A DNA stretch of 64,000 bases from Dryococelus australis (taxonomy: Eukaryota; Arthropoda; Insecta; Phasmatodea; Phasmatidae). Below, piece after piece: positions 9,087 through 62,908 of the stretch (position 1 is its first letter; every line of letters begins with the position of its first letter). The translations under genes and the position numbers were made by a program. The notes beneath the pieces were generated by a model. That model had not been told where the DNA came from. It worked only from the letters and a program-made list of their open reading frames with translations, and did no database searches. The DNA is taken from NCBI GenBank assembly GCA_029891345.1, contig CM057000.1:135562163-135626162 (forward strand), given 5' to 3'.

Positions 9087-9288
9087 CACTTGAATTTACA
9101 TCGAGCAAGAATTTAAAAAAATATTCCTCTGCCATTGAAAACATAGCCCTGCAAGTTTGTAGTTTCTCTGTATCCTTAAACTATACAGACCCAGTGAACA
9201 CACTATTGTACATTACGCGCGTGTAGGTAATTTCATGTATGTACTGCTAACTCCGCGGCTCAGAGACCAATTTTGGAAAAAGGGGGAG
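9087..9288. other. Unassigned spacer
   Basis: Nothing recognised; it ends in a G-rich stretch before a SINE. Confidence 0.4.
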
Positions 9289-9517
9289 GGGGCTTGGCAA
9301 GGTGGCTGAGCAGATAGACTGCTCGCCTCCAGCGGCCGGGTTACTTCCGGATTTTCTCAAGTTGGAATCGTGCCGGACGTCGCAACTGGTCGGCGGGTTT
9401 TCTCGGGGATATCCCGTTTCCCCTGTCCATGCATTCCGGCACTGTTCCATTCTCACCTCATTTCAAGGCCTCCTTGTTAAGAGCCGCCCAGATTTCGCAA
9501 CTCTACTCAATAACCAA
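9289..9517 (+). mobile_element. tRNA-derived SINE (family S1), diverged head
   Basis: Holds AAGGTGGCTGAGCAGATAGA in place of the usual A-box region, CTGCTCGCCTCC, then TCTCGGGGATATCCCGTTTC, GCATTCCGGCACTGTTCC and a tail of AACTCTACTC type. About 20 bases of the B-box region are missing compared with 24641-24889. It abuts the left end of the fold-back element at 9521. Confidence 0.8.
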
Positions 9518-9704
9518 TAGTAGTAGGGGAGTGATGGTTCTGGCCCACTAGGCACACTGACAAGGCATAATGCCATAAGATTAACCTGGTAAGGGTCTCG
9601 GACAGGAGAATACCAAGCAAAGTTCTGTCGTATGACTGGAAGAGCCTCTCTCGGGTTACTAGCTGCCGCTATCAGTTAATCCTGTGCTTTGATTGGTACA
9701 CATC

Positions 9705-9955
9705 AACATCCACCACAACATCCACAACCAGCACCACACCTAGCACCACATTAGCACCACATCTTAAGGTGACACCACAATAGCACCACATCTAACACCA
9801 TATCCTGAGGCAGCACTACAATAGCACCACACCTATCACCACATTAGCACCACATCCTGAGATAGTACCACAATAGCACGACACATAGCAATACATTAGT
9901 ACTACATCCTTAAGCAGTATCACAATTAGCACCACAATCTCCTCCTCCTGCTCCT
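9705..9955 (+). repeat. CACCAC-rich tandem repeat in the left arm
   Basis: Irregular repeats of AGCACCACA(T/C) interspersed with longer units containing ATCCTGAGGCAG or ATCTTAAGG. The inverse in the right arm (about 17320-17425) is much shorter, so unit number has changed since the arms separated. Confidence 0.8.
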
Positions 9956-10528
9956 CCTCCTTTCCACACAATACCACACTTCACTCTATCTGCTCCACCC
10001 CTTCAACTACCAACACCCCCTTTCCCCCTCTTATACCTAAGCTGTGTTGAGATTACTTCTGGAATTAATCGGCTACTTGCTGCGAGATTCTAGGCTCTCT
10101 CCTGCACTCCTCAGATATGGTTAACACCCTCCCCACGCCCTCCCTTCTCCTGTACTGCGATTGCTTAACCACACCCCCAACCTCCTCAACCATACACTCA
10201 TTCCAAGCCAGGTAGGTTGTGTTCAGTTCCAAATTTGCTTATTAAACAATCCTGCTGTGGCTATCGAAGTTGTAGAGTTGACCACCAGGAATGCTGATGT
10301 CTTTATTTGCTGTCATCGACCGCTAGGTAGCGCACAAACTCAATTAATCGATTACATTGATTTCTCACATCGACTACCAGAGAGCACACAAATCGCTCGT
10401 CCACCACAGCCAATGTTGTTTAATGCTATTATCCGTTACTACGAGCTCTGAGCTCGGCTGGAAGCATACGAAAATTTTCTCCATTATATATGTAATGCGT
10501 TAGTACACGATAAACATTTTTTGCTATC

Positions 10529-10592
10529 TAGTGATTTTGAACAAGGGAACCCTGGCTCGATAACTCAATTATCTAATCGATTGAGCTATCTT
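10529..10592 (-). other. tRNA-like sequence 2 (left arm)
   Basis: On the minus strand it reads GATAGCTCAATCGATTAGA (A-box-like) and then TTGTTCAAAATCAC (B-box-like) about 35 bases on. The counterpart in the right arm is at 16946-17001. Not a functional tRNA gene as far as I can fold it. Confidence 0.45.
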
Positions 10593-10705
10593 TTTTTGTC
10601 ATTTTTATTGTAGTTGTTGTAGTAGTAGCTGAAGAGTTAAAATTAGACCGACTTGTTGACAAGTTTCCAGTGCGACAAGCGAACTAAATATCTGCCATGT
10701 TGGAG

Positions 10706-10774
10706 GCAATGGGGTGCGAACCCGCGACCCTCCGGCTACAAGTCAACTACCCTACCCTGAGCTATGAGGGCAGG
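10706..10774 (-). other. tRNA-like sequence 1 (left arm)
   Basis: On the minus strand it starts GCCCTCATAGCTCAGGGTAG, followed by GACTTGTAGCC in the anticodon-loop position and GGGTCGCGGGTTCGCACCCC as the T arm. Box A and box B spacing is tRNA-like. The TGT in the loop suggests threonine tRNA ancestry, which is an inference. The acceptor ends do not pair well, so I call it tRNA-derived and not a gene. Confidence 0.6.
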
Positions 10775-11261
10775 GCGACTAAGTTGAAATTGAAGTTTTT
10801 ATAAGGTAAATAAATAATGATAATCTGCAAACTTGCAGATTCAAAATGAAGTTGTAATTTATAAACTGTAATTATATGAAAATATGATGTATTTATATTA
10901 ATATATGTATATAAAAGTGTAAAATTGTCAAACATACATGTTTGAAGCAACATGTTCACGAACTAGTATTTAAAAAGAGATTTTGTTTATGGGGACACAA
11001 CAGTCAAATATTGAAAACATTATTTTTTGAAAAGAAAATGTATGTCTTTAAATTTAAAATGTAGTAATTAATGTTTTTACAAATAAGTATATCGAGTAAC
11101 ATATCTAAATATTCGTATTTATTATACCAGAAAATGATTACATAACTATAAAGATCGCCATCTTGAATTTTCATAAGCTTAGATTTGATATAATTTTTAT
11201 TTTTAAATTCGTTATGTAACCCCTCCGAACATGAAACACAACTCATCGCTTACCTTACAAC

Positions 11262-11690
11262 AGGTCATTTAAGTCCTAAACCCTTTCTGCAAGGTCAATT
11301 TTGAGTTAAGCCCTTTTATAAATATACTCATAATTTCCGAACCATTGATGCTTTGGTCATCATATTCATAACATAGATATCATACCCAACATACAACATT
11401 ATGGTAATGTCATTTAAGCCCTAAAACATTTTTGCCAAGGTATATTGTGTTTAAGCTCTTTTATAAATGCAGTCATAATTTTTTAACCATGTGAGCTATA
11501 GCAATCAAATTTACAACATTGGCATCATACCAAATATAAGGAGTTATGTCTTTTTTTAAGCATAGTAACTCATAATTTCCAAACAGTTGATACTATAATC
11601 ATTAAATTCATAACACGTTCATCAGCCCCAGCAACAAACTATACTGTAAGATCAAACACAACTTAAAACCTTTTGTAAGCATAAACCTAT
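11262..11690 (+). repeat. Degenerate ~145-bp tandem repeat (left arm)
   Basis: About three units with the recurring blocks GTCATTTAAGYCCTAAA, AAGCYCTTTTATAAAT, CATAATTTYC, then CATCATACC and CAACAT. The same array appears inverted at 15905-16270. Confidence 0.7.
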
Positions 11691-12048
11691 CACATGAATA
11701 CTCATTAAGTACATATATACCCATGTAATATTTATTTCATTTCAGATTTTGACCAAATGGTTGGTTGGCTTGTTACTAGGATTCCTTAATGTAATGTTAA
11801 TTTCGGATTATCGCGTTAAGAGTCTCGGCCAGTGCACCTAATATTATTTTATATCCGAATTTAACAAATATTTAGTTTTGATTTATATTCCTGCTTACAG
11901 CAATTATTGCAATGTTGGGTTCGATTCTTGGGCAGAACACTTATTATTATTTTCATTTTGATCTTAACAAAAATTTATTTTGTATTCCTGCATATAATAA
12001 TAAGGTAATGCAATTTTTTTGATAACTGACTATGATTCCCAGACTTCT

Positions 12049-12282
12049 GTTAATCAGAAGTTAGCATTCGTTATGTTAAGATGTGTACTTAGAGTGAAAA
12101 TAATTATTTTAGATAATCTATACGTAAATACTACTTATGTGTTCTTGACTTGCAATGAAGGAATGAGTATGTTCTCAAATGTATAGTTATCTTCCATCAT
12201 TGTTTTTTGTTTTTTATTGGTCGATGGGTATTTGGTTTCAGATCATTACATACATAGTCGTTTCAGTTGGATATGTATTATG
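12049..12282 (+). repeat. 234-bp direct repeat, copy 1
   Basis: Matches 13942-14175 over its whole length with about three differences that I can count. It starts GTTAATCAGAAGTTAGC. This copy sits inside the left arm; the corresponding point of the right arm lacks it. Its identity is far higher than that of the arms, so the duplication is younger. Confidence 0.92.
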
Positions 12283-12456
12283 CCAATTCTTGCGCATTCA
12301 CTTATTACCGATGTCTATCGCATTACCTGATATATGTCTACTCCTCAACTGACGTGTTACAAGTTCGGCGTCAGTTATTTAAGTTTGAGAATTGTGGAGG
12401 CAATGCAGTTATATGATGTAATCTGGTAATGTCGTAATCGTGTAACTAACGTAATT

Positions 12457-12955
12457 GTGCAAATCGATACTTGCATAATCAAGCAGGTGAATAACCAAGT
12501 ACAAATATTTACTTTTCAATCACACAACTATACAATACTAAATGAAGTGAAAATTAAAATGATATACAAAGCCATAGAAAGAGAAATACTTGCACACTTA
12601 TCTGATTTTCAAAGAAGGGATTCAGGATGGGTTTTTTGAGTTCAGCATACCAGTCGTAACACTCTGATAATTGTGATATTGTGTTTACTCGTAGTGATGT
12701 CCTATATAGAGCTAAGATGAAGTATTGTTTGTTGATCACCGGGAAGCGAATGCATGTATTGCAGCAAGGCATTTGCGATTAGGTTTAGTGCTAGAAAACC
12801 TGAAGATAGTAACTATTAATTTGCCAATAGTTATAAGAGCTATCTATACATGTGTTAACTGTAATGTTGTATATGCGAGTAGTGAAACCTTGAGTGGATA
12901 CTGTAGAAAATGTTCTATGAGTTTAGAGCATAGTATAAATTCTTTTTTGAAATGA
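12457..12955 (+). pseudogene. Coding remnants in the fold-back core, with a CxxC-CxxC motif
   Basis: Two open stretches in different frames. The first (12457-12639) ends in a segment EREILAHLSDFQRRDSGW. The second (open from 12716 to the stop at 12953) contains CVNC, 13 residues, then CRKC, which could form a zinc ribbon. The second has no ATG before the cysteines, so neither is an intact gene. An AATAAA lies at about 13010. The two may be parts of one protein separated by a frameshift or intron. I do not recognise the family; the region could be a decayed element-encoded protein. Confidence 0.4.
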
Positions 12956-13266
12956 GAATATGATGGAGTATATGTAAGTAATACTACATATTTTTCGATA
13001 ATTTTTTGAAATAAAGATAAATTTTATGAAAGACTATTGTTTTTATTAATTCTATCCCTTCCAACTTTTACGTGTTGTTATTAGCAATCGCTTATAAAAG
13101 TTAAGAGAATGATAATAAAGACTTCAATATAAAAATGTATGGATAGTTGAATGCCTATATAACATTCATTCTACCGATATGTATAAATTTTTGAAGACAT
13201 TACATGAAACATTTTTTTAATATGTATGGCTAGATATATCCTATAAACACTTGGATTTGTAAATAT

Positions 13267-13600
13267 TGCTGCAGATTGATTGAAAGATTATTAATATTTG
13301 GTAAAGATTGGTAAAGACTGATGTAAAGATAATAAAAGATCGGTAAGGAATGGTGGAAATATTGGTGAGGATTTATGGAAAAAATTGATAAAGATTGGGA
13401 AAGATTGATGGAAAGATTTTTAAATATTGTAAATGATTGGTGAAAAGATTGGTAAAGATTGGCAAAGATTGGTGGACAGATTGTTAAACAATGGTAAGGA
13501 TTGATGGAAACATTGGTAAGAATTGATGGAATATTGTTAAAGTTTGGTAAGGATTGATGGAAATATTGTTAAATATTGATCGAAAGTATGTTAAAGATTG
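13267..13600 (+). repeat. Irregular tandem repeat of GATTGGTAAA type
   Basis: Short words such as GATTGGTAAAGATTGG and GATTGATGGAAA are repeated with variable spacing across about 330 bp of the core. A short GT run (about 13605-13618) and a TTTTGGGTTA-type repeat (13620-13720) follow. Confidence 0.8.
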
Positions 13601-13941
13601 GTTTGTGTGTGTGTGTGTTTTGGAGTAGATTTTGGTTTTTGGTCAATTTTGGGTTGATTTGGGTTATTTTGGATTATTTTGGGTTTGTTTGTGTTATTTT
13701 AGATCATCTTAGGTTAATTTCGATCAATTTGATTAATTAGGAGCAAGTATGGGTGGAGCTGGTTTGCAAATTGGAATATTTTAGGTTCTTTGTGTGTGAG
13801 TTTGTGTTAGTCTGTGTATATGTGTTGTCGATTGGTTGTGTCGATTGCGTATGTGTTGTCGATTGGTGTAGACAGATGATAAATGCTGTAATATAGAGTG
13901 AGCTAGTTAATGAAAAGAATTATGCGTAATATCATAAATAT

Positions 13942-14175
13942 GTTAATCAGAAGTTAGCATTCGTTATGTTAAGATGTGTACTTAGAGTGAAAATAATTAT
14001 TTTAGATAATCTATACGTAAATACTACTTATGTGTTCTTAACTTGCAATGAAGGAATGAGTATGTTCTCAAATGTATAGTTATCTTCCATCCTTGTTTTT
14101 TGTTTTTTATTGGTCGATGGGTATTTGGTTTCAGATCATTACATACATAGTCGTTGCAGTTGGATATGTATTATG
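13942..14175 (+). repeat. 234-bp direct repeat, copy 2
   Basis: Second copy of 12049-12282, located in the core. The two copies bracket 12283-13941, which includes the coding remnants and the GATTGG repeat. Confidence 0.92.
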
Positions 14176-14220
14176 TCAATATTTTGGTTAATTTACTTGG
14201 TATGCAATTAAAATAATTAT

Positions 14221-14541
14221 CTATTTATCCTGTATGGTTTTTAAATTTTTATATATATATATTCCACTACACACTAAACGAAACTTGAAACTGTCCTGTG
14301 TATGATCCATGTGATGGAACTCGTATATCTCACCACTTACTACATTTACTATAACCATTTCAAACCCAGGAGTTCTTTTATAAACAACCTGTACATCATT
14401 ATACTTTAAATTAAATATGTGTGATAATGTGTATTGCAAGACAGAAGATGGAGATTTGTTTATTTGTGTTGTATGAAATGTTGATATAGTTTTCAAGTAT
14501 TTAGTTTTGCTGGTAAATTTTGATGTTAAGGGGTTTTGCAA
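14221..14541 (-). other. Open frame of unknown significance in the core
   Basis: 106 sense codons on the minus strand, but the first codon is TTG and no ATG opens the frame. No motif recognised. Part of its sequence is duplicated directly downstream: 14459-14544 resembles 14616-14698. Probably a remnant or chance frame. Confidence 0.25.
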
Positions 14542-14544
14542 GTG

Positions 14545-15230
14545 AATGGTTTGTCGTTAGTAATATAGTTTGAAGTGGTTCCTAAATATGATTGTGTCTG
14601 CTTTGTATGCGTTGTTCATTTGAGTTGTATGATCTGTTGATATATTTTCAAGTATTTGGTTTTGCTTGTAAAGTTTGGTGGTATGGGGTTTTGCAATTGT
14701 CTGTTATGGTGTGTGTAAATTAGTTGTATGAGTGTGCATATGTGTGTTTAGGTGTGTGTGCATGTATGGGTATGTGTTTTGCTATTACATGGTGATATGT
14801 TTTATCAAAGTAATTCATTGGAAATATTCTGTCTGTGGGTGTTCGTGTGTGTTGAAGCCGTATGCATAATTGTTTTTCCTGTTAGGTTTTGTTGAGTTGA
14901 CAAGAATAAAGCAGGAAGTGATCTCGCTTGAAAATATTGTATGGGCCTCATGTTTACGGTAAGGCTTTAGTATTGAGCTGTCGTTCCTCGGGAGCATACG
15001 TATACCTCTCTACATACAATGTGCATACTTGATAAGTGTGTCTGGCGAATGGTAGCCTAGTGTAAGTGTAATACCTCACTTTCATAATAATGCTAATTAT
15101 AAATTCTGAAACTAATGAAAAGATATATGAGAGTTGACATCTGCTGTTTTGGTGAGAAGACATATTACTTTCTTGAATGTTTAGTGGTTAATTATTAATG
15201 TGTAGATGTACATATCTAGTAAATATTCAT
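14545..15230. other. Rest of the fold-back core
   Basis: GT- and TG-rich low-complexity sequence (about 14700-14790), then unassigned AT-rich sequence. Nothing coding seen. Confidence 0.4.
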
Positions 15231-15904
15231 TACATGATTATGCAAACATGGATTTGCACCATTATGTTAATTACACAATTACATTATTACCTGATTACAT
15301 CATATAACTGCATTGCCTCCAACTTTCTCGACCTTCAACAGTTGACATAGAACATGTAACATGTTAGTTGAGCAGTAAACATAGGTCAGGTAATAAGATA
15401 GACATCGAGCATAAGTGAATGCATAAGAATGGATTTTCCAGAATTTTATATCAATATTAAGTGAGTCGCCTGGGAATCGAAGTCAGTAATCCAAAAATAG
15501 ATTATATTAATTACTATATGCAGGTATACAGAGCAAAAATTAATATTTATTAAGTTCAAATTTAAAATAGTAATGTGTTCTGTCCAAGAATCAAACCCAA
15601 ATACGAAAATAGCATTGCATTATTGTTCTAAGCAGGAATAAATATCAAAACTAAATTTATTGTTAAATTCGGATATAAAATAATATAAGGTGCTCTAACC
15701 AAGACTTGAACTCGATAATCTGAAATTAACATTACATTAAGTAAACCTAGTACCAAGCCAACTCACAAGTAAAATCTGGTTAAAATCGGAAATGAAATAA
15801 ATGTTATGTAGGCAAATATGTCCTTGATGAGTATGCACTTGATAAGTTTATGGCTAACTGTGCTTACAAATTTTTTGAGTTGTGTTTGAATTTGCAGTCT
15901 TGCA

Positions 15905-16270
15905 ACTACGCTTATAAAATGACATAACTCATGATTAATCTTACAAGAAAGGGAATAGAATCTAAATGACATAACCATCGTGTTGGATATTGGATATGAT
16001 GCCTATGTTATGAATTTGATTCCTATGTTTCCAACCATTCGTAAATTATGATTAAATTTATAAAAAGGGCTTAACGCATAATTTACCTTGGCAGACAGGT
16101 TATAGGGCTTAAATGACATAATCATTATGTTGTATGTCGGGTATGGTGTCTATGTTATGAATTTGATGACCATAGCATCAATGGTTCGGAAATTATGAGT
16201 ATATTTATAAAAGGGCTTAATTCAAAAGTGACCTTGCCAGAAAGGGTCTAGGACATAAATGACATGTTGT
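15905..16270 (-). repeat. Degenerate ~145-bp tandem repeat (right arm)
   Basis: Inverse counterpart of 11262-11690, with blocks such as TTATAAAAAGGGCTTAA and TTATGAATTTGATNCC recurring. Confidence 0.65.
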
Positions 16271-16764
16271 AAGGTAAGCGATGAGCTGTGTTTGATGTTC
16301 GAAATGGTTATATAATTAATAAAAAAAATTAAAAAATATCACTTCTGTGTTTACGAAAATTCAAAACGGCTATGGTTATAGTTACATAATATTTTTTTCT
16401 GATAACATATTCTTATCAGTATAAAAATACGGATCTTCATACATGTTGCTCGATTCACTTACTTGTAAAAAATTAATAACTATATTTTTAATTTCTTTAT
16501 AAAGAAGTATGTTTTGAATATTTGGCTGTTGTGACCCCATAAACTAAATCTCTTTTAAAGTACTAGTTTATGAACATGTTGCTCCATTAATGTATGGTTG
16601 ACAATTTTAAAGTTTTATATACATATATTAACATAAACACACCACTTTTTTACATAATTAAGATTTATTATTTATTACAACTTCATTATGAATGTGCGAG
16701 TTTGTAGGTGAGCCTTTTTTATAACCTTATTAAAATCCCATTTCAACTTATGTCTTGGTAGCCG

Positions 16765-16840
16765 CCCTGCCCTTATAGCTCAGGGGTAGGGTGGCCTATT
16801 AGTAGTCGGAGGATCGCGGGTTTGCACCCCAGTGCCTCCG
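16765..16840 (+). other. tRNA-like sequence 1 (right arm)
   Basis: Contains CCTTATAGCTCAGGGGTAGG (A-box-like) and GATCGCGGGTTTGCACCCC (T-arm-like). Inverse counterpart of 10706-10774. Confidence 0.55.
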
Positions 16841-16945
16841 ACACGGCAGATGTTTAGTTCGCTTGTCTCAATGGGAATTTGTCAACAATCCTGTCTAACT
16901 TGAGCTCTTCAACTACAACAATAATGGCAAAAAAAAATATTGCCC

Positions 16946-17001
16946 AGTCGACTAGAGCATTGATTTAACGAGCTGGGGTTCTCTGGTTCAAAACCACTAG
17001 A
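16946..17001 (+). other. tRNA-like sequence 2 (right arm)
   Basis: Contains TGCCCAGTCGACTAGAGC and CTGGTTCAAAACC in A-box and B-box order. Inverse counterpart of 10529-10592. Preceded by an A-rich stretch at 16931-16938. Confidence 0.45.
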
Positions 17002-17706
17002 AAGCAAAGTTTTTTTTTATAGTGTATTAACACATTACATATATGATGGATAAAATTGTCTCAAGCCCCCAGCCAAGCTCAGAGCTCGTAGTACCATGGG
17101 TTAAGCAGTCAAAGGGCAGCAGAGGGGAGGTGTTGAGAGGGTGTTAACCATATCTGAGGAGTGCAGAAGAGAGCCGAGAATCTCGCACCAGGAAGCCGAT
17201 TAATTCCCGAAGTAATCACAACACAGCTTTATATAAGAGGGTGGAGGGTGATGTAGGTAGGTGAAGGGGTGGAACAGGTAGTTAAGTGCAATGTTAAGTG
17301 CGGAGGAGGAGGAACAGGAGGAGGAGGAGATTGTGGTGCTAATTGTGATGCTGCCTCAGGATGTGTTGCTAATGTGGTTCTAGGTGTGGTGCTGGTTGTG
17401 GATGTGGAGGTGGATGTTGATGTAGACCAATCACAGTACAGGGATTGTGGATAACGCCGGCTAGTATCCCGAGAGAGGCTCTTCCAGTCATGCGACAGAA
17501 CTTTGCTTGGTTTCCATCTGTCAGAGACCCTTGCCAGGTTAATCTTATGGCACTACGCCTTGTCAGTGCGCCTAATGGGCCAGAACCATCACTCCACTAC
17601 AACTACCGATTCATCTTACCTGTGGATAAATGACTCTCAAACCGTCTTATTGGTCTAGGGCATAGTAGGCTCATAAACTGTAGCCGGTCATATAGCCTAC
17701 AGCTCA

Positions 17707-18039
17707 ATGGCCGTTGTGACGGCTATCTCTGCACATCGAACGAAAGTCAAACCGACGGTGCCATATGAAGTTGAGAAAATGTTGGCCGTTTGGGACGGTT
17801 TACCTTCGCTGCGACGGGGTGTGTTTGACGAGCTCCACGCCTCACGTCCGCTGGGCGGGCCTGCTGGTCTGCAAGTATGGGCGCCGCGGGCCGCTACCGC
17901 CCACGAAACGATGGCTGCCTTCTCCTCCCTCGTACGTCACTTTAACCACGTGACGCCTGCCAGCCAGTCACGCACCACCAGGGTGACCGTCCAGGACTTC
18001 AGATATCGACGGAGGGAAGATCATTTTGTAATGGTCTAG
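17707..18039 (+). CDS. Possible small ORF, 110 codons, unknown
   Basis: ATG-initiated frame in a locally GC-rich island just outside the fold-back element. AATAAA (about 18050) lies some 10 bases after the stop, followed by a strong hairpin (GGTGTCTC...GAGACACC, 18066-18094). No domain or signal peptide is recognised. Composition and the nearby polyadenylation-type signal make it slightly better than a chance ORF, but there is no homology argument. It could be an exon, a retroelement remnant or chance. Confidence 0.25.
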   Translation: MAVVTAISAHRTKVKPTVPYEVEKMLAVWDGLPSLRRGVFDELHASRPLGGPAGLQVWAPRAATAHETMAAFSSLVRHFNHVTPASQSRTTRVTVQDFRYRRREDHFVMV

Positions 18040-18065
18040 ATGATTTCAAATAAAATATAAATACA

Positions 18066-18094
18066 GGTGTCTCGCCCAGATTCGGGGAGACACC
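18066..18094. other. Strong hairpin
   Basis: GGTGTCTCGCCC is inverted as GGGGAGACACC with a loop of about 6-7 bases. It lies just after a possible ORF end. Confidence 0.6.
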
Positions 18095-18560
18095 ACAGGG
18101 TTTTCACTTGGGCAGGAACTGTTATTCCGTCAACATTTTAAAGAAGGGGCTTGCTGCCATATTAGTTAACTATGGTTTAAAGCAAAATAATTATATGTAA
18201 CCTGCATATAGGTGAGAAGAGATGTAATCTTGTAAAAGTGTAGATTTTGGGGGAAGTTGTAAACATAATTATTTTTATACCTTTTTTATACTAAACGTAA
18301 TGAGTGAGAAAATTATATTTTTATATAACGTTTATTGATTGTAAAATTCTGGGGAAAAACTGTGTAAATGGTTATATTTTGATATAAAAACCAAGGCAAC
18401 GAATAATTTTCAAACCTTTTCACTGGAAACCAAACCAAATCCCCTTTTTTTTTGACGTCAATGGGGGGCTCTCAGCTGTTTTCCAATTTAAAACACCTGC
18501 ATTCAGGAAGCAGTTGAGACAAGGACCTCGTCCTGTATGTGTTGTTAAACACCGTCACAC
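18095..18560. other. AT-rich intergenic sequence
   Basis: Nothing recognised. Confidence 0.4.
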
Positions 18561-18564
18561 TGTG

Positions 18565-18653
18565 ATAACTTTGTGTCGACTTAAGTACAGCACCCATCAT
18601 AACATATGTGCTTTACATTAACTGAAACCGTATATTAAAGTAGACTGATAGGG
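18565..18653 (-). mobile_element. piggyBac-like MITE (family K), end fragment
   Basis: Reverse of the first ~85 bp of the element at 28394-28689: GTCGACTTAAG, CAGCAC, ATCATAA and GAAACCGTA are shared in order. It ends in GGG immediately followed by TTAA (18654-18657). The other end is lost. Confidence 0.7.
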
Positions 18654-21900: not shown

Positions 21901-22177
21901 GGTAAACTCTAGACGGCTCAATAACACTAGAATAATTACAAAAACTACAAATGATTTTATTACTTCTTCTCATACATGATATCTAATACATGAACAAGCA
22001 AATACTGAATGAATACTAGTTTGGAATATCTAAACAAATAATACAGAATAAAACTTGACTCTTCAAGCTACAATTACATTATCGAATTATTAGGCTCTTA
22101 ATGGGGGACCTCTCGGGTTCACTGCACGTAATATCACCTCCGGATCTATCCTGCACCCATAAACGAATTTCTCCTTA

Positions 22178-22415
22178 TAGACTGTTCACGGTAAATTGAG
22201 CACTTTTTAAGGCCCTGGTAAAGTTTTCCTTTCAGCCAATTTCTATATTTCCGCCACTTTTTAATATAAATATTGCTATGTGACTAATAAACACAGTGTA
22301 TACATTTCATCACACTGAAATTATAACGCCTAAGGCTGCAATAAAATATTTTTATTAGTGGTTAATGGCTGCTGGGAGGGCCTTAAAGAGTGTTCACTTT
22401 ACCGTGAACAGCCTA
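22178..22415 (+). mobile_element. Family B MITE, copy 2
   Basis: 238 bp, TA duplications, left end TAGACTGTTCACGGTAAATT, right end the inverse ACTTTACCGTGAACAGCCTA. Internal words CGCCACTTTTTAATATAAA and CACAGTGTATACATTTCA are shared with other B copies. Confidence 0.9.
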
Positions 22416-22638
22416 TATCACTGATAATTACGACACGACCGGAGTTCCTCCGCTTCGTGATGTGTTGTCGTGGATGGCCAAACTGGACACGTCTCTCCAA
22501 GATGCCGGTATCTCGACTCGCCTTGCAATGTTGTCCTCGCGAGTTTCTCGCGCCGACCTCCGTCGTCGATGTAGCCCTCGAGTAGTGGTACCAAAAGAGT
22601 GGGTCTTCAGGCTCCAGCGGCCTTAAATATACCATCTA
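22416..22638. other. GC-rich spacer
   Basis: CpG-rich 220 bp between a MITE and the Tc1-like element; the reading frames show no motif. Possibly part of an unrelated older repeat. Confidence 0.35.
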
Positions 22639-23189
22639 CCAAAAAGTTATTGTGCACCCGTGAAGATAGGTAACTCAGTACCTCAGTTGACTTGTGTTTC
22701 ACGGCCTTCGGCGTAGGGCCGCTGGTGTTTGTCCGTGGTAGCATCAACACACAGGCATATTGTAACATTCTGGATAATGAAATGCTCCCAACATTGTGGC
22801 GTTTTTACGGAATGAACCCGTGTTACTTCCAGGATGACAATGCCAGGTGCCATGTTTCAAGGGCTACTATGCAGTGGTACGCCGACAACAATGTTCGCCG
22901 ATTGGACTGGCCTGCCCAGACCCTCGACCACAACTCTATAGTACATCTTTGGGACGAATTGTATCGCCGGGTGAGGGCTCGTCAGGCGCGGCCAAAATCC
23001 ATCGCTCAACTCATGGAATGGTTGCAAGAGGAACGGCGACGAATCCCCGTGGATGTCCTGCAGACACTCGTAGAGAGCATGCCAGACAGGGTGGCTGCTG
23101 TTATAGCCGCAAGAGGTGGCCCTACGAGATTCTAACGGGGTAACAACCACCGAGCGAACATTGTGGATAAGTGCCCAATTACTTTTTGG
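22639..23189 (+). mobile_element. Internally deleted Tc1-like transposon
   Basis: The 551-bp element is bounded by CCAAAAAGTTATTGTGCAC and its inverse GTGCCCAATTACTTTTTGG, each next to a TA (22637-22638, 23190-23191). TA duplications and the encoded transposase fragment place it in Tc1/mariner. The usual autonomous length is about 1.2-1.7 kb, so roughly the 5' half of the transposase is deleted. It is not autonomous. Confidence 0.88.
22692..23135 (+). pseudogene. Tc1-like transposase, C-terminal fragment with lost catalytic Glu
   Basis: 147 open codons, the first a TTG inside the old frame. The order of motifs is that of the Tc1 DDE domain: CFTAFGVGPLVFVRG, then FQDDNARCHVS holding the second catalytic Asp (residue 49), then HLWDEL preceded by NSIV where family members have NPIE. 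The Glu position (residue 84, 34 residues after the Asp, as in DD34E) is Val, codon GTA at 22941. The C terminus ends in a typical VESMPDRVAAVIAARGG block. The N-terminal DNA-binding domain and first Asp are absent, so the protein is dead. Confidence 0.92.
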
Positions 23190-25089: not shown

Positions 25090-25496
25090 AATAAATGGCA
25101 TTGAAAGTAAATAATTGTATTTCGTTATTATTGTTTTTTTTTTATTTTACGTGTATATTATTTTATTATGCCATTACATTCGATTTCGTTTAAATGGCGT
25201 TCACTTATTGTTTAATAATATTTCGTATTCGTGTGAAAGGAGAATATTTAATTTCATATAGTGTTATTAAAAGAAATATCACCCATACAAATAACCCAAA
25301 ACAAACCTGCTGCCTGCACCAAAAAGGAACACAGTGTTACACATGTAACAATTAAAATCTGGACATCCAGTGATACATGTAATATTGTGATACATTTACA
25401 TAAACAGTAGTCCATGTGACATAATAAAAGTTATTCATTAAATGGAAATTTGGATTCAGTTCGAACTGTTATTATGTGGTGTTTCATTGTCCACAT

Positions 25497-26470: not shown

Positions 26471-26631
26471 TAAATCTTTTTCACTCTTTTAAAAATAACC
26501 TTTCCTTTCTTCCCTTATTCCGCGAACCTTACAATTGGACCTTCTCTATTACGTGTTACTTATGTTAGAATTGTTAAATAAACAAATTACTTAAAATTTG
26601 ATATAATCTTCTCTAGCCTTAACTTTCTATA

Positions 26632-26859
26632 TAGGCTGTTCAAGATAAAGTGGGCGTTTTTTCAGGCCCTCTCAACAGGCTAATAAATATGTTTTTTTTT
26701 TGCAGGCTCAGACATTTACTTTCGAGAATGGTGAAAGTATATACCGTACTTAGTCGAATGATAATGCTGCTATTAAAAAGTGGCGGGAAGATAAAAACTG
26801 GCTTAAAAGAGAACTTTGGAAGGGCCTTAAAAAGTGCTCACTTCGCCGTGAATATCGTA
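26632..26859 (+). mobile_element. Family B MITE, copy 3
   Basis: 228 bp with TA on both sides. Left end TAGGCTGTTCAAGATAAAGT; right end eroded (GCCGTGAATATCGTA). Internal sequence matches other B copies. Confidence 0.82.
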
Positions 26860-26861
26860 TA

Positions 26862-28389
26862 TTTCTGTTTCTTATTCCCGTAGGAGTAAGATTATAACAA
26901 GATGCACTTTGATTAAATTTCTAATTAAATATTTCAGTGTCGGAAATCTAGGACACAAATTTTATTTATATTGTTTATATAGCATTTAGTTATTTTTTTA
27001 ATTATTTCTTCTTTTTTTGTGATATTATGGAAGTTGTTCAGAATACGAATATGTAGGTGGAAAATAAAAATTCTTAATTTAAAAAAATTAAAAAAAGTTG
27101 TTTTATAAATTGGAAAATAGTAGTTGAATGCATATGTAGTTGACTCTATTGCACTAGTCTAGCTGAACAATTTAGAGGAATTGTAAAATAATTATAGGTG
27201 GGTGACAAAAACGTTATTTCAACACTGGTTGCAGTTCCTCCGCAAAAGACCAGAATATTTCTGTGAACTCGTAAGGATGAAAGTGTACGGATCGTTGACT
27301 CTGAGTGCAGCAAGTTGTCAATTATTATTATTTCCTTTACCTCACCTTGTTGCCCTTTCACAGCGCTCTAGCGCCTGAACCATTTGTAAGAAAATTTAAC
27401 TGATCTAATGCATTTTGTACAAAATTTTATCTACTTTAATTTTGAATAATGTGGTATTTTCGATGAAACTCGTAGTTTTCGAGATGTAAGCGGAATAAAA
27501 AAAGTGCGAAATTTCTAGGGTTTTTTTTTTTTTTGCAGTTTTCTCTGTGAAGCCAACATTTCTCGAGGTGGCAAACATAAAATTCGAATTCAGCACCCCA
27601 AAATCATATAGAATCGATGAGAAAAAATTTCCTGAATTTTTCCCTGGATCAGGCCCTTTCGACTGGACTATTTGAGCTTATCGTCGAATACTGGATTGCA
27701 CGCACAATCACTTATATTGGGGAAAAAAACTCCATAGTTACAGGAGAACTGTTATCTTCGCTGTAATGAGATATATTACTTTATCTACTACTTACAGATT
27801 TCTACCTACTGGTTAACTATCCGTGTGTTCAGGCAATGCCATGAAAAAAAATTCACGCACATGCCTATGGCTTATCAAATATTTTCGTTTCTCTTTGGTG
27901 GGCTGAGGGAAAGAAAAGAGAGAGGGTTTGCGGGGGGAGGGGGGTGAAGTACAAAAGTAAAGATGTATGAACTTTTTTTTTTTCGAGGGTGCGTCGATTT
28001 TCGAGTGCATGTCACGACTACAGCGGCACATTTGGAACGATGTCAAAACGAGCCCGCGTATGGATGTCGTTCTATTAATTCAATTGCCCTGTGGAGTTGG
28101 TGTTGCGAAACGCTGTTTCGCCCCGCTCCGCGAACACAATACTTCAACACGATGGGGTGTAGGGAGGGGTGGTTTGTCGAGAGGGTGAGTGGGGTGCCCG
28201 CAAGGGGGACGGGAGGGGTGGGATTGACTACGATGTTACCAACTCAGTGGATTTCCCGCCAGATTTGGTGTATTTAACTCCTAGCTAGTGGGCAGAATTA
28301 TTTTCTAGTAGCCAGTGGATAATCCAGCAGGAATTTTAAAAATTGTCAGTGGAACGTGGGGGAAATTTTTCTGTGAGGGAAGAAAATAT
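26862..28389. other. AT-rich sequence with a GC-richer island
   Basis: 26862-27960 is AT-rich with T and A runs. 27990-28230 is GC-richer with G-rich purine tracts; two overlapping frames open there but neither has a recognised motif. Confidence 0.4.
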
Positions 28390-28393
28390 TTAA

Positions 28394-28689
28394 CCCTTTC
28401 AGACCCAATTTAATTTACGGTTTCAAGTGAGGCGAACAAAACATTTTATGATGCGTGCTGCACTTAAGTCGACATAACACTTGTTTTGTTGCCACAGCCA
28501 ATGAGCTGTAGGCTATATGTTTGGCTACAGTAATATGAACCAATGATGATTTAGACGAGTAAGGTGGTTTGCGAACCGTTTACCGATAGGTAAGATGATC
28601 GGCCGTTGAGCTACGCAGTGTGCAGTACAGACAAAAACCTACCTACACGAACGTAATGTACTTAACTGTGTACACTGGGTCTGAATGGG
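28394..28689. mobile_element. piggyBac-like MITE (family K)
   Basis: Left end CCCTTTCAGACCCA and right end TGGGTCTGAATGGG are inverse with one mismatch. TTAA lies on the left (28390-28393) and ATAA on the right (28690-28693), a likely mutated TTAA. TTAA duplication and CCC termini are characteristic of piggyBac. 296 bp, non-coding. A fragment of the same family lies at 18565-18653. Confidence 0.82.
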
Positions 28690-30943: not shown

Positions 30944-31338
30944 TAGTCAATTCGTGGGCTATTCACACGTTTTGTATCAAACGTGTGAAATATTACCCCA
31001 TGTTTTATTAATTCGGTTGTTTCCTAAATGTGGCATGTGTCACAAGTGTTTATATTTTGTGTTATAAGAAATTGGACTTTTACTTTTTTTTATTTGTTAA
31101 TCATAACATTTTATTAATGATTAATATGAGTAAAACCAGAGAGAATATAGGTGTGTTGATAATGCCTAGTAAGAAATATTTCTTATGCAAATTACTATTT
31201 TACTAAATGAGCAAGAATACGGTGCGTTGTCCCTTTGGCGTAATACTTTAACCTTAGCTTTGTTTTCACGAGGCGAAGGAATCGGCTGAAAGCATAACTT
31301 TGGCAGTGCTTTAGAAAAGTTGTAAGTAACCGTGACTG
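30944..31338 (-). mobile_element. Family C MITE, reverse, ending in a minisatellite
   Basis: Left end TAGTCAATTCGTGGGCTATT; body shares CCCCATGTTTTATTA, GATAATGCCTAGTAAGAAAT and GCGTTGTCCCTTTGG with the reverse of other C copies. The far end AAGTAACCGTGA is the family terminus, but instead of closing with ATAGACTATA the sequence passes into the 32-bp tandem array. Confidence 0.8.
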
Positions 31339-32096
31339 AACTACGGATAGTAATATAGTCACCGTGACTGAACTACAGATAGTAATATAGTCACCGTGAC
31401 TGAACTACAGATAGTAATATAGTCACCGTGACTGAACTACAGATAGTAATATAGTCACCACGACTGAAGTACAGATAGTAATATAGTCACCGTGGCTGAA
31501 CTACAGATAGTAATATAGTCACCGTGACTGAACTACAGATAGTAATATAGTCACCGTGACTGAACTACAGATAGTAATATAGTCACTGTGACTGAACTAC
31601 AGATAGTAATATAGTCACCGTGACTGAACTACAGATAGTAATATAGTCACCGTGACTGAACTACAGATAGTAATATAGTCACCGTGACTGAACTACAGAT
31701 AGTAATATAGTCACCGTGACTGAACTACAGATAGTAATATAGTCACCACGACTGAAGTACAGATAGTAATATAGTCACCGTGACTGAACTACAGATAGTA
31801 ATATAGTCACCGTGACTGAACTACAGATAGTAATATAGTCACCGTGACTGAACTACAGATAGTAATATAGTCACAACGACTGAACTACAGATAGTAATAT
31901 AGTCACCGTGACTGAACTACAGATAGTAATATAGTCACCGTGACTGAACTACAGATAGTAATATAGTCACCGTGACTGAACTACAGATAGTAATATAGTC
32001 ACCGTGACTGAACTACAGATAATAATATAGTCACCGTGACTGAACTACAAATAGTAATATAGTCACCGTGACTGAACTACAGATAGTAATATAGTC
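31329..32096 (+). repeat. 32-bp minisatellite, exactly 24 units
   Basis: The unit is 32 bp: ACCGTGACTGAACTACAGAT followed by AGTAATATAGTC. 768 bp hold exactly 24 units with no indel. Variant units are few: ACCACG...GAAGTAC in units 5 and 14, ACAACG in unit 18, GGCTG in unit 6, ACTGTG in unit 9, CGGATAG in unit 1, and G-to-A changes in units 22 and 23. It begins inside the terminus of the family C MITE. Confidence 0.97.
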
Positions 32097-33172
32097 AGTA
32101 AAGCTACAATTAATTCAGAATGTTTGGAAAACTGTTATCTGTGACCTCTTTATTAATTTCTAATGTTTATCTAAACTGTACTCAAACATTTCAAATGTCG
32201 CTGTATAACGTGGTTCATAGCCATTGACCAAAACAGATAATGTCGTTATAATAAATGCGATTGAAAACTGTACTGTGGTATTGGTAACTAAAACCATTTA
32301 TGAAAGTACTAATTAAAATCATAGCAATGTTGAGAAAAATGTATAGAATTCTATTACGGCCGTGTTCATGTCCATTGTTATAAAGCAAAATCGAAATAAT
32401 TTAATGAAATGGTTAGTGAATTAAATTCAAGTAAACTTTTACAGTTACATTTCCCTCCGTTAGTACATTTGCGGTTTCGCGAATTATTTTGTAACATTAA
32501 ACGTAGAACACCAAGCGTGGAACGTAATACTTATAAAGCAAGTAAGACAACGCCGTAAATAAAGGTAATCATACTCAGCTGAGGAACGTTAACAGGAATC
32601 TTTATGGCAACCTTCAGACTTGGGCTAAATATAGTGACAATAAGCACATTATCCAGATATCACTTGAAGTATATGCTGGGTGAAAATTAGAATAAATAGC
32701 TCGTCCCCTGGCTTACCCTTCACGCCATCTGATTTTTATATGACAGTCTCGCCTCAGCTACGTTATCAAGACGCAAGAAATAGCATGATTTCTATCTATC
32801 GCTCATACTCAATGTGAATTGCTATAATTTCACATCAACTTATGTACTGAAAGGTTTGTTTGAGAAATATTTTCAATCGATATTTAAAAAAAAAATGGTG
32901 CATTATGTCAATAAAAAACTGGTGAATGATTGCCATATTCACGGAATACTAGTTCTGTGTTAGAAGCAACCGTGTATTTAAACAAATCTTTCGGACCGAC
33001 TTTAATTAACGCCTTTAGGTGCTGCAAAGAAGATTCTTCATGAGTGCTGTTCTTAAGCCAACACAGTATTTTCCAGAATTCACATGAAGCTCATAACTTA
33101 GGGGGTAACTCATGATTGTAGAGCAATGTGGGGTAGATAAATATAAAGAGCTAAGGTTACTAAAGGCTGTTC
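32097..33172. other. AT-rich intergenic sequence
   Basis: Nothing recognised. Confidence 0.4.
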
Positions 33173-36465: not shown

Positions 36466-37540
36466 ATCACACAGAACATGAATTTACTAGAGGCATCACA
36501 TTATTCACAGTACATACTAACTAAATGCGATGGCGGGGAGAGCTACAAAAATTGGGAAAATTGGGGTAAAACGCATAATTATGTAGGTATAATTTATGCA
36601 CACACACGTATGGTTTGCTGCGCTAAATACAGGAAGTAATAACCTGACTACGTAGCTTCACTATTGTTGGATGACAACAGTGTGTGTAGGTAATTCTTAA
36701 GAATAGGGGCTTTATCGATGAAAAAAATCTCTGAAAGAGGTACAATTCCACTCTACTAATTACACAGAACACAAATTGACTAGGGGTATCAACATTTTAC
36801 AAATAGAAACCCCAAAAACTATAGTGGGCAGGGCTATGAAGATCAGAGAAATTTTGGGGTGAATCAAATATAAAAAAATAGTCCTAGACCTATATACGTT
36901 TTCATGATAAAATTTTACCCCTCAGTTTCCCTCCAGTTCATAGCCCCCCCCCCCCACTATCATATTTCTCAATTGTATTGATACCATTGTCAATTTGGGT
37001 ATTTTTCCGTTCAATATTTTTGTAATTAAACATATTTTCATCGTACAATATTACAAAAATATTACAAATAGCACGAAATTACAAAACGCACACACGTATT
37101 ATTCCTCAATGCAAATGGGCTACACATGAAATTCATTTATGGTGAAACTGCAAGCTTCGCTGATGCTTGGCACTTTGCGTCACTACCGAAAAAAATTGCC
37201 GGCGAGGTTGAAACACTGTTTTGGGGATTTACTCCCCTGCTGGCGCTGGGACTCTGGCTTTGTGCATAATGTTTGGCTATGCTTGTACAGTCTTTTTGCA
37301 ATTTTAACATTGTCGTAAATAAATACTACATTATGTACATATGTTTCACTCGTTTTACCCCACAATTCCCCTGATCTTCATAACCCGCCCCAATATTGTT
37401 TTTGGAGTTTCCATTGTTCAAATGTTGATGCCCCAAGTAAATTTGTGTTCTGTGTAATTAGTAGATGGGAATAATACCACCTTCCACGATATATTTTTTC
37501 GGAATAGCCCCTATTCTTAGGAATTGCGGAAGTATGAAAT
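36466..37540. repeat. Repeat cluster with four copies in both orientations (family H)
   Basis: A ~105-bp segment recurs at 36466-36575 (+), 36765-36870 (+), about 36915-37000 (-) and 37350-37460 (-). Landmarks are CACAGAACA..AATTNACTAG, then GGGC(A/G)GGGCTATGAAGATC-like words and TTTTGGGGT. The outermost pair 36700-36730 and 37510-37530 (TTCTTAAGAATAGGGGC and the inverse GCCCCTATTCTTAGGAA) suggests a fold-back element of about 0.85 kb with arms near 190 bp. A C run lies at 36945-36956. Confidence 0.65.
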
Positions 37541-40049: not shown

Positions 40050-41168
40050 CACTCTAAATCGGAATCAGTTATTTCTTACTGATTGTCAGTTGAAACTGCT
40101 TCATCCGGAATCAGTAGAATAAGAAAACTACTAATCTATTCAGTTAAATGAAATCCACTAATACAAACAGTAGAAAATCAGTCATTTATAGTCGATTAAC
40201 AAAAAGCACAAGGATTAAATAACCGCGCACAACGGTTTGAAATAAATCAAGCACAATTATTTTGTCGCAAAACAAAATTATTAGCCTACATGTACAAGGA
40301 AATTTTGGAAGTGGTTGGTATCGAACCGCCACCCCAAAACGCAACACATTCTCTTGTTTCTTTTGGCTGACGTTCTACCAACTCTGCTACTTTTCCACGG
40401 ATATAAACGGTCTCGCATTTGTGTAGTAACATATACTTACAATGACGAACGGCTGTAAGTTTCGTAATGTGAAAGTACTTCATGTTGTCGAAATGTACAC
40501 ATATTATGCGCACGTAGGTACCTGCATGTCTTTGTAAGGCTCGAAAGTCATTCTAAGTTAAGTTTAGTTCAGATTGTGAGCTTTAAAATAGAAATAAAGT
40601 AGTTTTAACGGTGTTGTCGGTGTTTTATATGTAGTATCTGCCATTTTACAATGCAACGAGATCTTACAGAATGAAACTGTTATTTTGAAGAGACAGATTG
40701 ACTAGTAATATCTGTGTTTGTCGTTTCCTCATTATTTGATCTGTTAACTTGCAGACCACAAAATATTTGTTGGTGTACATTCACCTTTCTTATTGAATCA
40801 CCGCACTATCGAGTCAGTAGAATTATCACTGATCTATATGGCACTAAAAATAACAGTTTAAATCTGTAATGTCTCGTTGCATTGTAAAATGGCGGATACT
40901 AGTTAACATCGATAACCTCGTACATTGAAACCACTATATTTATCTTTTAAAGCACAGTATCCGAACTAAACAAACGATAGTAGGTTGACTTTTGAACTTT
41001 GCAAAGACGTGTACTTGCATTATCCAACTATAAATAACTAGTTTTCTACTGCTTAAATTAGTAGATTTCTTTTAACTGATGAATTGGTGATATTTTTTCT
41101 ACAGATTCCGGATGGAGCAGTTTCAACTGACAATCAGTAAAAAAAATAACTGATCCCGGTTTAGAGTG
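40050..41168. mobile_element. Fold-back element with an asymmetrical insertion (family I)
   Basis: Termini CACTCTAAATCGGAATCAGT and the inverse ACTGATCCCGGTTTAGAGTG. The arms pair from the ends to the centre; an inner pair is GTATCTGCCATTTTACAATG (40634-40653) with CATTGTAAAATGGCGGATAC (40881-40900). The left arm is about 0.3 kb longer because of the segment at roughly 40200-40515, which holds a tRNA-like sequence. Duplications are unclear and there is no coding capacity. Confidence 0.75.
40310..40405 (-). other. tRNA-like sequence in the left arm of family I
   Basis: On the minus strand: AAAAGTAGCAGAGTTGGTAG (A-box-like) and GGTGGCGGTTCGATACCAAC (B box, T arm), about 60 bases apart. It lies in the segment present in one arm only, so it likely came in with a SINE-type insertion. 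Confidence 0.5.
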
Positions 41169-44777: not shown

Positions 44778-45014
44778 TAGGCTGTTCACGGTAAAGTGAG
44801 CACTTTTTAAGTCCCTTCCAAAAGGCAATAACCACTAATAAATATATCTTATTGCAGCCTCAGGCATCAAATTTCGAGGGTGGTGAAATGTATACGCTGT
44901 GTTTGCTGGTCACATAGCAATGTTTATATTAAAAAGCTGCAGGAAGATGGATATTGGATGAAAAGAAAATTTAGAAGGGCCTTAAAAAGTGCTCACTTTA
45001 CCGTGAACAGCCTA
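44778..45014 (+). mobile_element. Family B MITE, copy 4
   Basis: 237 bp between TA duplications (44776-44777 and 45015-45016). TIRs TAGGCTGTTCACGGTAAAGT and the inverse; only a few differences between the two ends, so this is one of the better preserved copies. Confidence 0.93.
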
Positions 45015-45016
45015 TA

Positions 45017-45603
45017 AGTGAAATACTGATCCGGTGATGGCTACATTTCCGGTGTCTCTCGTGGCCCAAATGGGTGCAACATTCCCTTTTGGTCAAACAC
45101 ACAGACCTCCAGAAACCAATTTTACAGGTAAAGTGCATGGACTCTCATCATTGTCGTGGTTCCTTCATCGCAATGACTGCAGCAAAACTGAAAACTTCAA
45201 TGAGGAAAGTATTTAAAGAAAATTGCTATACTTAGAAAAAAATTGTTTATGCGTGCGCCACAAAGCTGAAATAAATGTCTTATTATTAATGTAAAACCAA
45301 TACATATCCAGAAATGACAGCAAAATAATAATGTAAAGGACAAATTATGAAAGTAATACTTAACAGGCAAGTTACTTTATCATGTGTACGACCGACACAC
45401 GAAGCAACATTACATATATATTTAACACTTAATTTCTAAGATGTATAAACTATCATGACACTTATACTACGTTATCAATTGAAAAACGTATTCACGAATT
45501 AAGAAAGTGTGTATTTTGACTTCATTCCTCGGGAAGGTATTTTCTTTTGTTCATTTTTTGATAATAGCAACCACTGAAGTTTCGTAATGCTTCTAGCTAA
45601 TAT
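45017..45603. other. AT-rich intergenic sequence
   Basis: Nothing recognised. Confidence 0.4.
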
Positions 45604-54424: not shown

Positions 54425-54788
54425 TACATGATAGGTTAGGCTTACCACCTCTAAACTTCCCTTTGGGTAGAGATGAAATTGTTAAGAATTAAATGTATTA
54501 GTTCACAGTAAAATTATTTACCTCCACAAATAGTGTGTGTTTAAGTTAGCCGTCAACGCATTAAGCAAGTACGACCAAGTTCTTGGATGCTGCAGCATTA
54601 TCCAGATTCAAACTGTGCAGTGTGATATTTGGACACACTTCGCTAACAGTTTACTTTTCCTCTTCACGAGTGATATAAGTCTCTGGCCTTTCAAGCTGAA
54701 GTTGTGCAGAATATTTGAAAATACAAAACCACATATTTATTTTTACTATGCAATATTAAAAACATACATAAGTTATGTTTCGATTAGT
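54425..54788. other. AT-rich intergenic sequence
   Basis: Nothing recognised. Confidence 0.4.
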
Positions 54789-62240: not shown

Positions 62241-62908
62241 AAGGCTGTTCACGATAAAGCGATCACTACTGAAGTCAACCTTAGAAAAAAGTCACTGCCC
62301 TTGCCTGCGCATATTTCAACGTACTCACCGAGTGACATTCGCCCAGTAAAGTTGGGATAGGCTATTCACGGTAAAAAGAGCACTTTTTAAGGCCCTGCTA
62401 AATTTTTCCTTTCAATTGATTTCTACTTTTCCGCCACTTTTTAATGTAAGCTTTCCAGTATAACTAATATACACAGTGTATACATTTCACCACTCTCAAA
62501 AGTTAACATCTGAGATTGCAATAAAATATATTTATTAGGGCCTTGAGGGCCTTTTGGGAGGGCCTTGAAAAGTGCTCATTTTACCGTGAACAGCCTATAA
62601 TGATGGTTAAAACGTAGTTCTTACTCTTAAATTAAAGTCGAATAAAAAGTGTTCGGTAACCATTTGTGATGTTTTAAATTATTTATTTCACATTCTATCT
62701 TTTTTAAGCACGCAAGTGTGAAAACGACCAGTTTTGTATAATAATTACTTTTCTAATAATTGTACAGTTTCGCTTGACCGACGCATGAATAAAGTGATGA
62801 GGCTCATGGCAATGTTAATTTTACGTAAGGTTGAAGAATAGACAACGTGTAGACAAGTACACGTTAATTAGGGCTTTCAAAAATGCTAATTTTACCGTGA
62901 ATAGTCTA
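62241..62908 (+). mobile_element. Family A MITE with nested family B MITE
   Basis: Left end AAGGCTGTTCACGATAAAGC, right end ATTTTACCGTGAATAGTCTA then TA. Without the nested B element the length is about 426 bp. Landmarks: GAAAAAAGTCACTGCCC, CCCAGTAAAGTTGG, GTGATGAGGCTCATGGCAAT. Confidence 0.9.
62358..62597 (+). mobile_element. Family B MITE nested in family A
   Basis: 240 bp, ends TAGGCTATTCACGGTAAAAA and the inverse TTTTACCGTGAACAGCCTA. The right-hand TA is intact (62598-62599); the left reads GA. It sits right after AGTAAAGTTGG of the host element. Confidence 0.92.

What the first reader, a model, noticed from the sequence alone, without database searches (positions are those of the whole stretch)
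9521..17602. 8-kb fold-back element with multi-kilobase arms, unknown class
Seen: many blocks in 9521-12485 recur inverted and in mirror order in 15231-17602, around a core of about 2.7 kb. The arms contain variable-number tandem repeats, as in Foldback and Galileo elements. Those families are known for long repeat-bearing arms; here no P-like or other transposase is visible. Inference: either a new fold-back family or an old inverted duplication of a chromosomal segment.
Basis: partly seen in the sequence, partly recalled or inferred. Interest (0 to 1): 0.8.

Follow-up and report, generated by a model that had tools for sequence, protein, structure and literature searches.

The report
Old fold-back transposon with Maverick-type ends
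An old 8-kb jumping element without recognisable genes sits here between very long mirror-image arms, and its end letters and 6-base target duplication look like those of the virus-like Maverick/Polinton transposons rather than those of the classic fold-back elements.

Summary
A left arm (9519-12481) and a right arm (15235-17604) are inverted copies, about 80% identical over 2301 aligned columns, around a 2753-bp core. The unit is a discrete insertion, not a local inverted duplication: a diverged copy of the target in the same window (28389-28686, minus strand) has the two flanks joined, and the target is duplicated as ACCAAT/ACCGAT (5 of 6), the only length from 2 to 12 that fits at these boundaries. 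A later SINE-like repeat (about 9272-9506) landed exactly on the left junction. The ends read AGTAGT (left) and AGTTGT (right, reverse complement). Paired (AGT)2 ends and 6-bp duplications are documented for vertebrate Mavericks (PMC8097293, passages). Galileo (7 bp) and Tetris (8-10 bp) duplications do not fit. No Maverick gene or transposase was found in 56 of 56 open segments. Best reading: an ancient non-autonomous (or gutted) Maverick-type element with arms of 2.4-3.0 kb, longer than the 46-1447 bp reported for vertebrate Mavericks. This is probable, not proven: one copy, one imperfect end, and no host genome held, so copy number and an autonomous partner are untested.

The parts
9519..12481 (+). 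left arm (terminal inverted repeat), 2963 bp, begins AGTAGTAGGGGAGTG
15235..17604 (-). right arm (terminal inverted repeat), 2370 bp; its reverse complement begins AGTTGTAGTGGAGTG
12482..15234 (.). core, 2753 bp, no recognisable gene, mostly G-over-C on the + strand
9513..9518 (+). left target duplication ACCAAT next to the element (also the right-hand copy of the SINE-like insert's own duplication)
9266..9271 (+). left target copy ACCAAT on the far side of the SINE-like insert
   Evidence: lines up with the empty target copy
17605..17610 (+). right target duplication ACCGAT
9272..9506 (+). later SINE-like dispersed repeat inserted exactly at the left junction, with its own imperfect 12-bp duplication (9 of 12)
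   Evidence: limits inferred from the duplication
28389..28686 (-). diverged copy of the target repeat without the element (empty target; GCCGAT at 28598-28603)
9730..9942 (+). distal tandem array in the left arm (about 4 units of roughly 41-52 bp; about one unit in the right arm)
11264..11538 (+). tandem unit of roughly 145 bp in the left arm (1.9 copies)
15916..16265 (+). the same unit (roughly 147 bp) in the right arm, 2 full copies and a third partial
12048..12287 (+). 240-bp segment that interrupts the left arm, 4 mismatches to a copy in the core
13941..14180 (+). second copy of the 240-bp segment, in the core
13256..13616 (+). degenerate purine-rich tandem array in the core

Best explanation
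This is a single, old insertion of a non-autonomous (or gutted) Maverick/Polinton-type element of 8086 bp with giant terminal inverted repeats. Shown: discrete unit, inverted arms, near-perfect 6-bp target duplication, empty copy of the target, AGT-type ends, no recognisable gene. Inferred: an autonomous Maverick elsewhere in the genome supplied a protein-primed DNA polymerase and an integrase. The polymerase would start at the repeated AGT ends (jumping back by one repeat) and copy the element by strand displacement. The displaced single strand would fold on itself through its arms, so that the annealed arms rebuild a double-stranded end. The integrase would then insert the linear copy with a 6-bp stagger. 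The arms would be identical at insertion and have since diverged to about 80%, with arrays growing or shrinking independently in each arm.
For: Ends and duplication: with symmetric boundaries 6 bp is the best of the lengths 4-12 tried; 5 of 6 bases match, and the one difference (CCGAT to CCAAT) is a transition at a CpG. Three observations agree: the duplication pair, the copy at 9266-9271, and the empty target that joins the two flanks. AGTAGT is exact at the left end (0.00035 per position in this window; 0.0017 within 2 bp of a random point) and 5 of 6 at the right end. PMC8097293 (passages) gives (AGT)2//(ACT)2 as the commonest vertebrate Maverick end motif, 6-bp duplications, and the link of repeated ends to jumping-back replication; PMC10045372 (passages) gives 6 bp for Polinton; PMC4046053 (passages) describes a single-stranded intermediate for casposons, modelled on the earlier Polinton model. 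No coding capacity: none of the 16 weak Pfam families matched by 56 of 56 open segments scanned is a Maverick gene or transposase.
Against: The right end is AGTTGT, not AGTAGT, and the duplication is 5 of 6; a 6-bp match of that quality joins 0.7% of random pairs of places in the window. Asymmetric boundaries give some longer, looser matches with lower p (best 8 of 11). The motif was looked up after seeing the ends. In the passages read it is documented for vertebrate Mavericks, while insect elements belong to another group (PMC10328495, passages), whose ends I did not see in print. No PolB, integrase or capsid remnant was found, so no gene ties it to Mavericks. The arms are 1.6 to 2 times the longest TIR reported for intact vertebrate Mavericks (1447 bp). 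Only one copy is known. Of five DNA-pattern scans of viral or bacterial/archaeal contigs, four gave no match and one gave a single chance match inside a phage gene.
Confidence: 0.55

Rival explanations
1. A non-autonomous cut-and-paste TIR transposon of another superfamily, known or unknown, that happens to make 6-bp duplications and to begin with AGT. Its long arms grew by recombination between copies, as proposed for Galileo, and the transposase acts in trans.
For: Long, internally repetitive arms arise in unrelated superfamilies and TIR length is called an unreliable classifier (PMC3573991, passages). IS3EU and GingerRoot also make 6-bp duplications (PMC10045372, passages). No Maverick gene was found.
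Against: Duplication lengths of 7 (Galileo), 8-10 (Tetris) and 2-5 do not fit at the boundaries. IS3EU/GingerRoot termini are TA..TA or TG..CA; with the boundary moved 1 bp outward to TA..TA the best match listed is 3 of 4 and the 6-mers AACCAA/CCGATT share nothing. The AGT repeat then needs a coincidence.
Confidence: 0.3
2. A formerly autonomous Maverick whose gene region was deleted after insertion, leaving both long arms and a remnant core.
For: Same ends and duplication. Mavericks of the Hessian fly are fragmented by deletions (PMC8504770, passages). Open segments with a protein-like look at 12716-12952 (+) and 14224-14556 (-).
Against: Much of the core is degenerate tandem arrays and skewed sequence. 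Those open segments are only marginal against 300 shuffles each (p 0.010 and 0.040 among 10 tests, uncorrected), have no Pfam match near a curated cut-off and no relative in viral contigs.
Confidence: 0.1
3. An old local inverted duplication of chromosomal DNA with no mobility.
For: The arms have no match elsewhere in the 64-kb window (E up to 0.01).
Against: The outer ends coincide with a target duplication and with the junction of an empty target copy; the ends carry a transposon-type repeat motif.
Confidence: 0.03

Closest known systems
Maverick/Polinton self-synthesizing transposons
   Same: AGT-repeat type ends, 6-bp target duplication, long terminal inverted repeats
   Different: 8.1 kb instead of 12.7-24.6 kb (intact vertebrate elements, PMC8097293, passages); no polymerase, integrase, protease, ATPase or capsid gene found; arms of 2.4-3.0 kb against 46-1447 bp there
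Galileo (P superfamily fold-back element)
   Same: very long arms with internal tandem repeats; copies made only of two TIRs occur (PMC3573991, abstract start and passages)
   Different: 7-bp target duplication; no P-type transposase found here
Tetris (fold-back element of Drosophila virilis)
   Same: long arms with internal tandem repeats, gene-less middle domain
   Different: 8-10-bp target duplications; tandem unit of about 220 bp (PMC4079207, passages)
Tlr elements of Tetrahymena (recalled; only search listings seen)
   Same: Maverick relatives recalled to carry tandem repeats inside long inverted repeats
   Different: about 22 kb and gene-bearing, limited to the ciliate germline (recalled)

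Membership tests
Maverick/Polinton | 6-bp target site duplication | tested here: met
   ACCAAT/ACCGAT, 5 of 6 (not perfect), the best of lengths 4-12 with symmetric boundaries; supported by the empty target copy
Maverick/Polinton | repeated end motif such as (AGT)2//(ACT)2 | tested here: inconclusive
   left AGTAGT exact; right AGTTGT, one change
Maverick/Polinton | long terminal inverted repeats | tested here: met
   2963 and 2370 bp, longer than the published vertebrate range of 46-1447 bp
Maverick/Polinton | protein-primed PolB, integrase and capsid/ATPase/protease genes (autonomous members) | tested here: not met
   none in 56 of 56 open segments of 45 aa or more; so at most a non-autonomous or gutted member
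Maverick/Polinton | shared terminal sequence with an autonomous Maverick of the same host | not testable with these tools
   no genome held
Galileo / P superfamily | 7-bp target duplication | tested here: not met
   4 of 7, and 3 of 7 with the copy beyond the SINE-like insert
Galileo / P superfamily | P-type (THAP) transposase | tested here: not met
   no match in 56 of 56 open segments
Foldback / Tetris (Mutator type) | 8-10-bp target duplication | tested here: not met
   0 of 8, 1 of 9, 4 of 10; with the copy beyond the SINE-like insert 1, 0 and 5
IS3EU / GingerRoot | 6-bp duplication with TA..TA or TG..CA termini | tested here: not met
   the 6-bp duplication fits AG..CT termini; 1 bp further out (TA..TA) the best match listed is 3 of 4
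local inverted duplication | no target duplication and no empty target | tested here: not met
   both are present

The most novel reading that the evidence does not exclude
A fold-back family parasitic on Maverick/Polinton machinery: gene-less elements whose multi-kilobase arms form the panhandle intermediate of protein-primed replication, in effect transposon satellites of a virus-like element.
Probability: 0.3. Interest if true: 0.65.

Novelty: new variant of a known kind. Interest (0 to 1): 0.45.

Why it matters
If it belongs to the Mavericks, the fold-back form would have arisen in a protein-primed, virus-like lineage as well as in cut-and-paste transposons. Gene-less elements with Maverick ends would show that this machinery can be parasitised in trans, which would be testable wherever both forms coexist. 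On what is in print: two searches for phrases such as 'non-autonomous Polinton' or 'internally deleted Maverick' found 0 papers. Looser word searches found 112, 13 and 5 papers, of which I saw listings of 20, 13 and 5 and read passages of only a few, so a description under other words may exist; subscription papers and Repbase are not covered.

Tried and rejected
Local inverted duplication: rejected. Galileo, Foldback/Tetris and IS3EU/GingerRoot by duplication length and ends: not met (with papers). Coding core: not supported; one open segment (12716-12952) has a weak match, E 0.0026, to a PHROG of unknown function (4 segments scanned). tRNA-like blocks that I thought I saw by eye in the arms and in the SINE-like insert: no support from ARAGORN or Rfam; dropped. 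A relaxed ARAGORN run listed 21 low-quality items, not used. Relatives in collections: the terminal 19-mer in viral contigs gave one match, L001, inside a phage gene with no further similarity to the arms; a second pattern gave 0 in viral and 0 in bacterial/archaeal contigs, a third 0 in viral contigs, a fourth 0 in bacterial/archaeal contigs. These collections are not where an animal element is expected, so the negatives say little. The first duplication computation used ends 3 bp off and is superseded; the notebook entry carries offsets of the same kind.

Full report
Observation. The self-comparison of the window and the repeat finder show a large inverted repeat. After exact placement of the ends the left arm is 9519-12481 (2963 bp), the right arm 15235-17604 (2370 bp), and the core 12482-15234 (2753 bp). 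The longest joined match has 1123 bits; 100 resampled arm pairs reached at most 38.3 bits. Over 2301 aligned columns the arms are 79.9% identical, K2P 0.236, which includes two poorly aligned blocks. The length difference between the arms comes from a tandem array at the left (about 4 units against one), a left-only segment at 10171-10431, and a 240-bp segment at 12048-12287. Outside the element the window holds no match to either arm at E up to 0.01; the only match to the core is 31 bp at 25100-25129 (E 0.003).

Discrete insertion. The flanks of the element belong to an older repeat, a second copy of which lies at 28389-28686 on the minus strand. In that copy the counterpart of the left flank (9183-9262) runs into the counterpart of the right flank. 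The right-hand match formally starts at 17600, five bases inside the element's end, through a short shared CAAC. Joins of the two flanks without the element were aligned to it in 289 spacings: the five best all move both sides by the same amount, which keeps the junction in register. The join at my boundaries, with the left target copy, scored 144. It is not the best: moving both sides 5 bp left (which uses the right target copy) scored 149, and 10 bp left (which also takes in four end bases of the element) scored 154. Between the left flank and the element lies one more insert, a SINE-like repeat whose relatives are elsewhere in the window. It is bounded by TCAGAGACCAAT and TCAATAACCAAT (9 of 12), so I infer that it landed on the junction after the element was in place.

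Ends. Next to the element the left side reads ACCAAT and the right side ACCGAT; the empty copy has GCCGAT (28598-28603). With both boundaries moved symmetrically, 6 bp at the present boundary is the best of lengths 4-12 (p 0.0067 for a single comparison; next best 0.038), and none of the other lengths from 2 to 12 fits at that boundary. Asymmetric shifts give some longer, looser matches, several of them with lower p (best 8 of 11, p 0.002), that eat into the right end of the element; I prefer the symmetric one because the arms end there. A 6-bp match of 5 of 6 or better occurs between 0.7% of random pairs of places in this window, so the duplication alone is modest evidence; it gains weight from the empty copy and from the copy beyond the SINE-like insert.

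The element starts AGTAGTAGGGGAGTG, and its other end, read inward, AGTTGTAGTGGAGTG. In the passages read of PMC8097293, vertebrate Mavericks carry (AGT)2//(ACT)2 or (AG)3//(CT)3 ends, 6-bp target duplications and TIRs of 46-1447 bp, and the repeated ends are tied to the jumping-back step of protein-primed replication. PMC10045372 (passages) gives 6 bp for Polinton, and TA..TA or TG..CA ends for the other 6-bp groups IS3EU and GingerRoot. Tetris has 8-10 bp (PMC4079207, passages). [quoted passage not shown]

Contents. All 56 stop-free segments of 45 aa or more listed were scanned against Pfam. The 16 families at E up to 0.5 are weak matches to one segment each (best 0.0026, DUF6549) and include no polymerase, integrase, packaging ATPase, viral protease, capsid or transposase. 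Against 300 shuffles each, two of ten region-by-strand tests fell below 0.05 (0.010 and 0.040, uncorrected). Protein searches of viral contigs with the two best segments confirmed no relative (28 and 8 pattern matches, none upheld). One of four segments matched a PHROG of unknown function at E 0.0026. As a yardstick, a Tc1-like remnant elsewhere in the window reached only E 0.068, and 85 further open segments of the window (75 aa or more, outside the element) had no Pfam match at 0.001, so strongly decayed genes could be missed. The core is G-over-C on the + strand (C 4%, G 27% in 13251-13940) and holds degenerate tandem arrays.

Mechanism. Shown: arms, ends, duplication, empty target, no recognisable gene. 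Inferred: enzymes in trans from an autonomous Maverick, protein-primed copying from the AGT repeats, annealing of the arms of a displaced strand, and integration with a 6-bp stagger. A single-stranded intermediate is proposed for casposons on the pattern of the Polinton model (PMC4046053, passages). The panhandle step here is my inference and was not tested.

History (inferred). Insertion into an older repeat; mutation of the left target copy (CCGAT to CCAAT); then the SINE-like insertion that duplicated the mutated copy; meanwhile divergence of the arms to about 80%. The 240-bp duplication between left arm and core has 4 mismatches, so it looks far younger than the arms; where the left arm has it, the right arm has about 40 bp of other sequence. 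I cannot explain it; template switching or conversion is a guess.

Limits. The window's genome is not held and the organism was not identified; that it is an arthropod is my impression from the repeats. Copy number, related copies and an autonomous partner are therefore untested, and the Maverick assignment rests on the ends and the duplication of one old copy.

Noticed in passing
12048-12287 and 13941-14180: 240-bp direct duplication, 98% identical, looks much younger than the arms; the right arm has about 40 bp of other sequence at that place; no inverted ends seen by eye.
   Followed up: partly
12482-15234: Core with strong strand skew (C 4%, G 27% on the + strand in 13251-13940) and several degenerate tandem arrays.
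   Followed up: partly
31325-32097: Tandem array of a 32-bp unit, about 24 copies, 96% matches.
   Followed up: no
45603-47538 and 54788-56646: Direct repeat of about 1.9 kb, 72% identical.
   Followed up: no
36692-37525 and 40050-41168: Two smaller units with inverted ends of about 172 and 142 bp, beginning AATTCTTAAGAATAGGGG and CACTCTAAATCGG; no match to the arms of the fold-back element. Target duplications not tested.
   Followed up: partly
22674-23132: Remnant resembling a Tc1/mariner transposase (DDE_3, E 0.068, below the curated cut-off).
   Followed up: partly
22174-22417, 26619-26861, 44776-45018, 62357-62599: Dispersed repeat family of about 240 bp, members with inverted ends of roughly 41-57 bp.
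   Followed up: no
17715-18570: Stretch absent from the 28.4-kb copy of the target repeat, so probably a second insertion in the right flank; overlaps a 120-aa open frame (17677-18036) without a Pfam match above cut-off.
   Followed up: no
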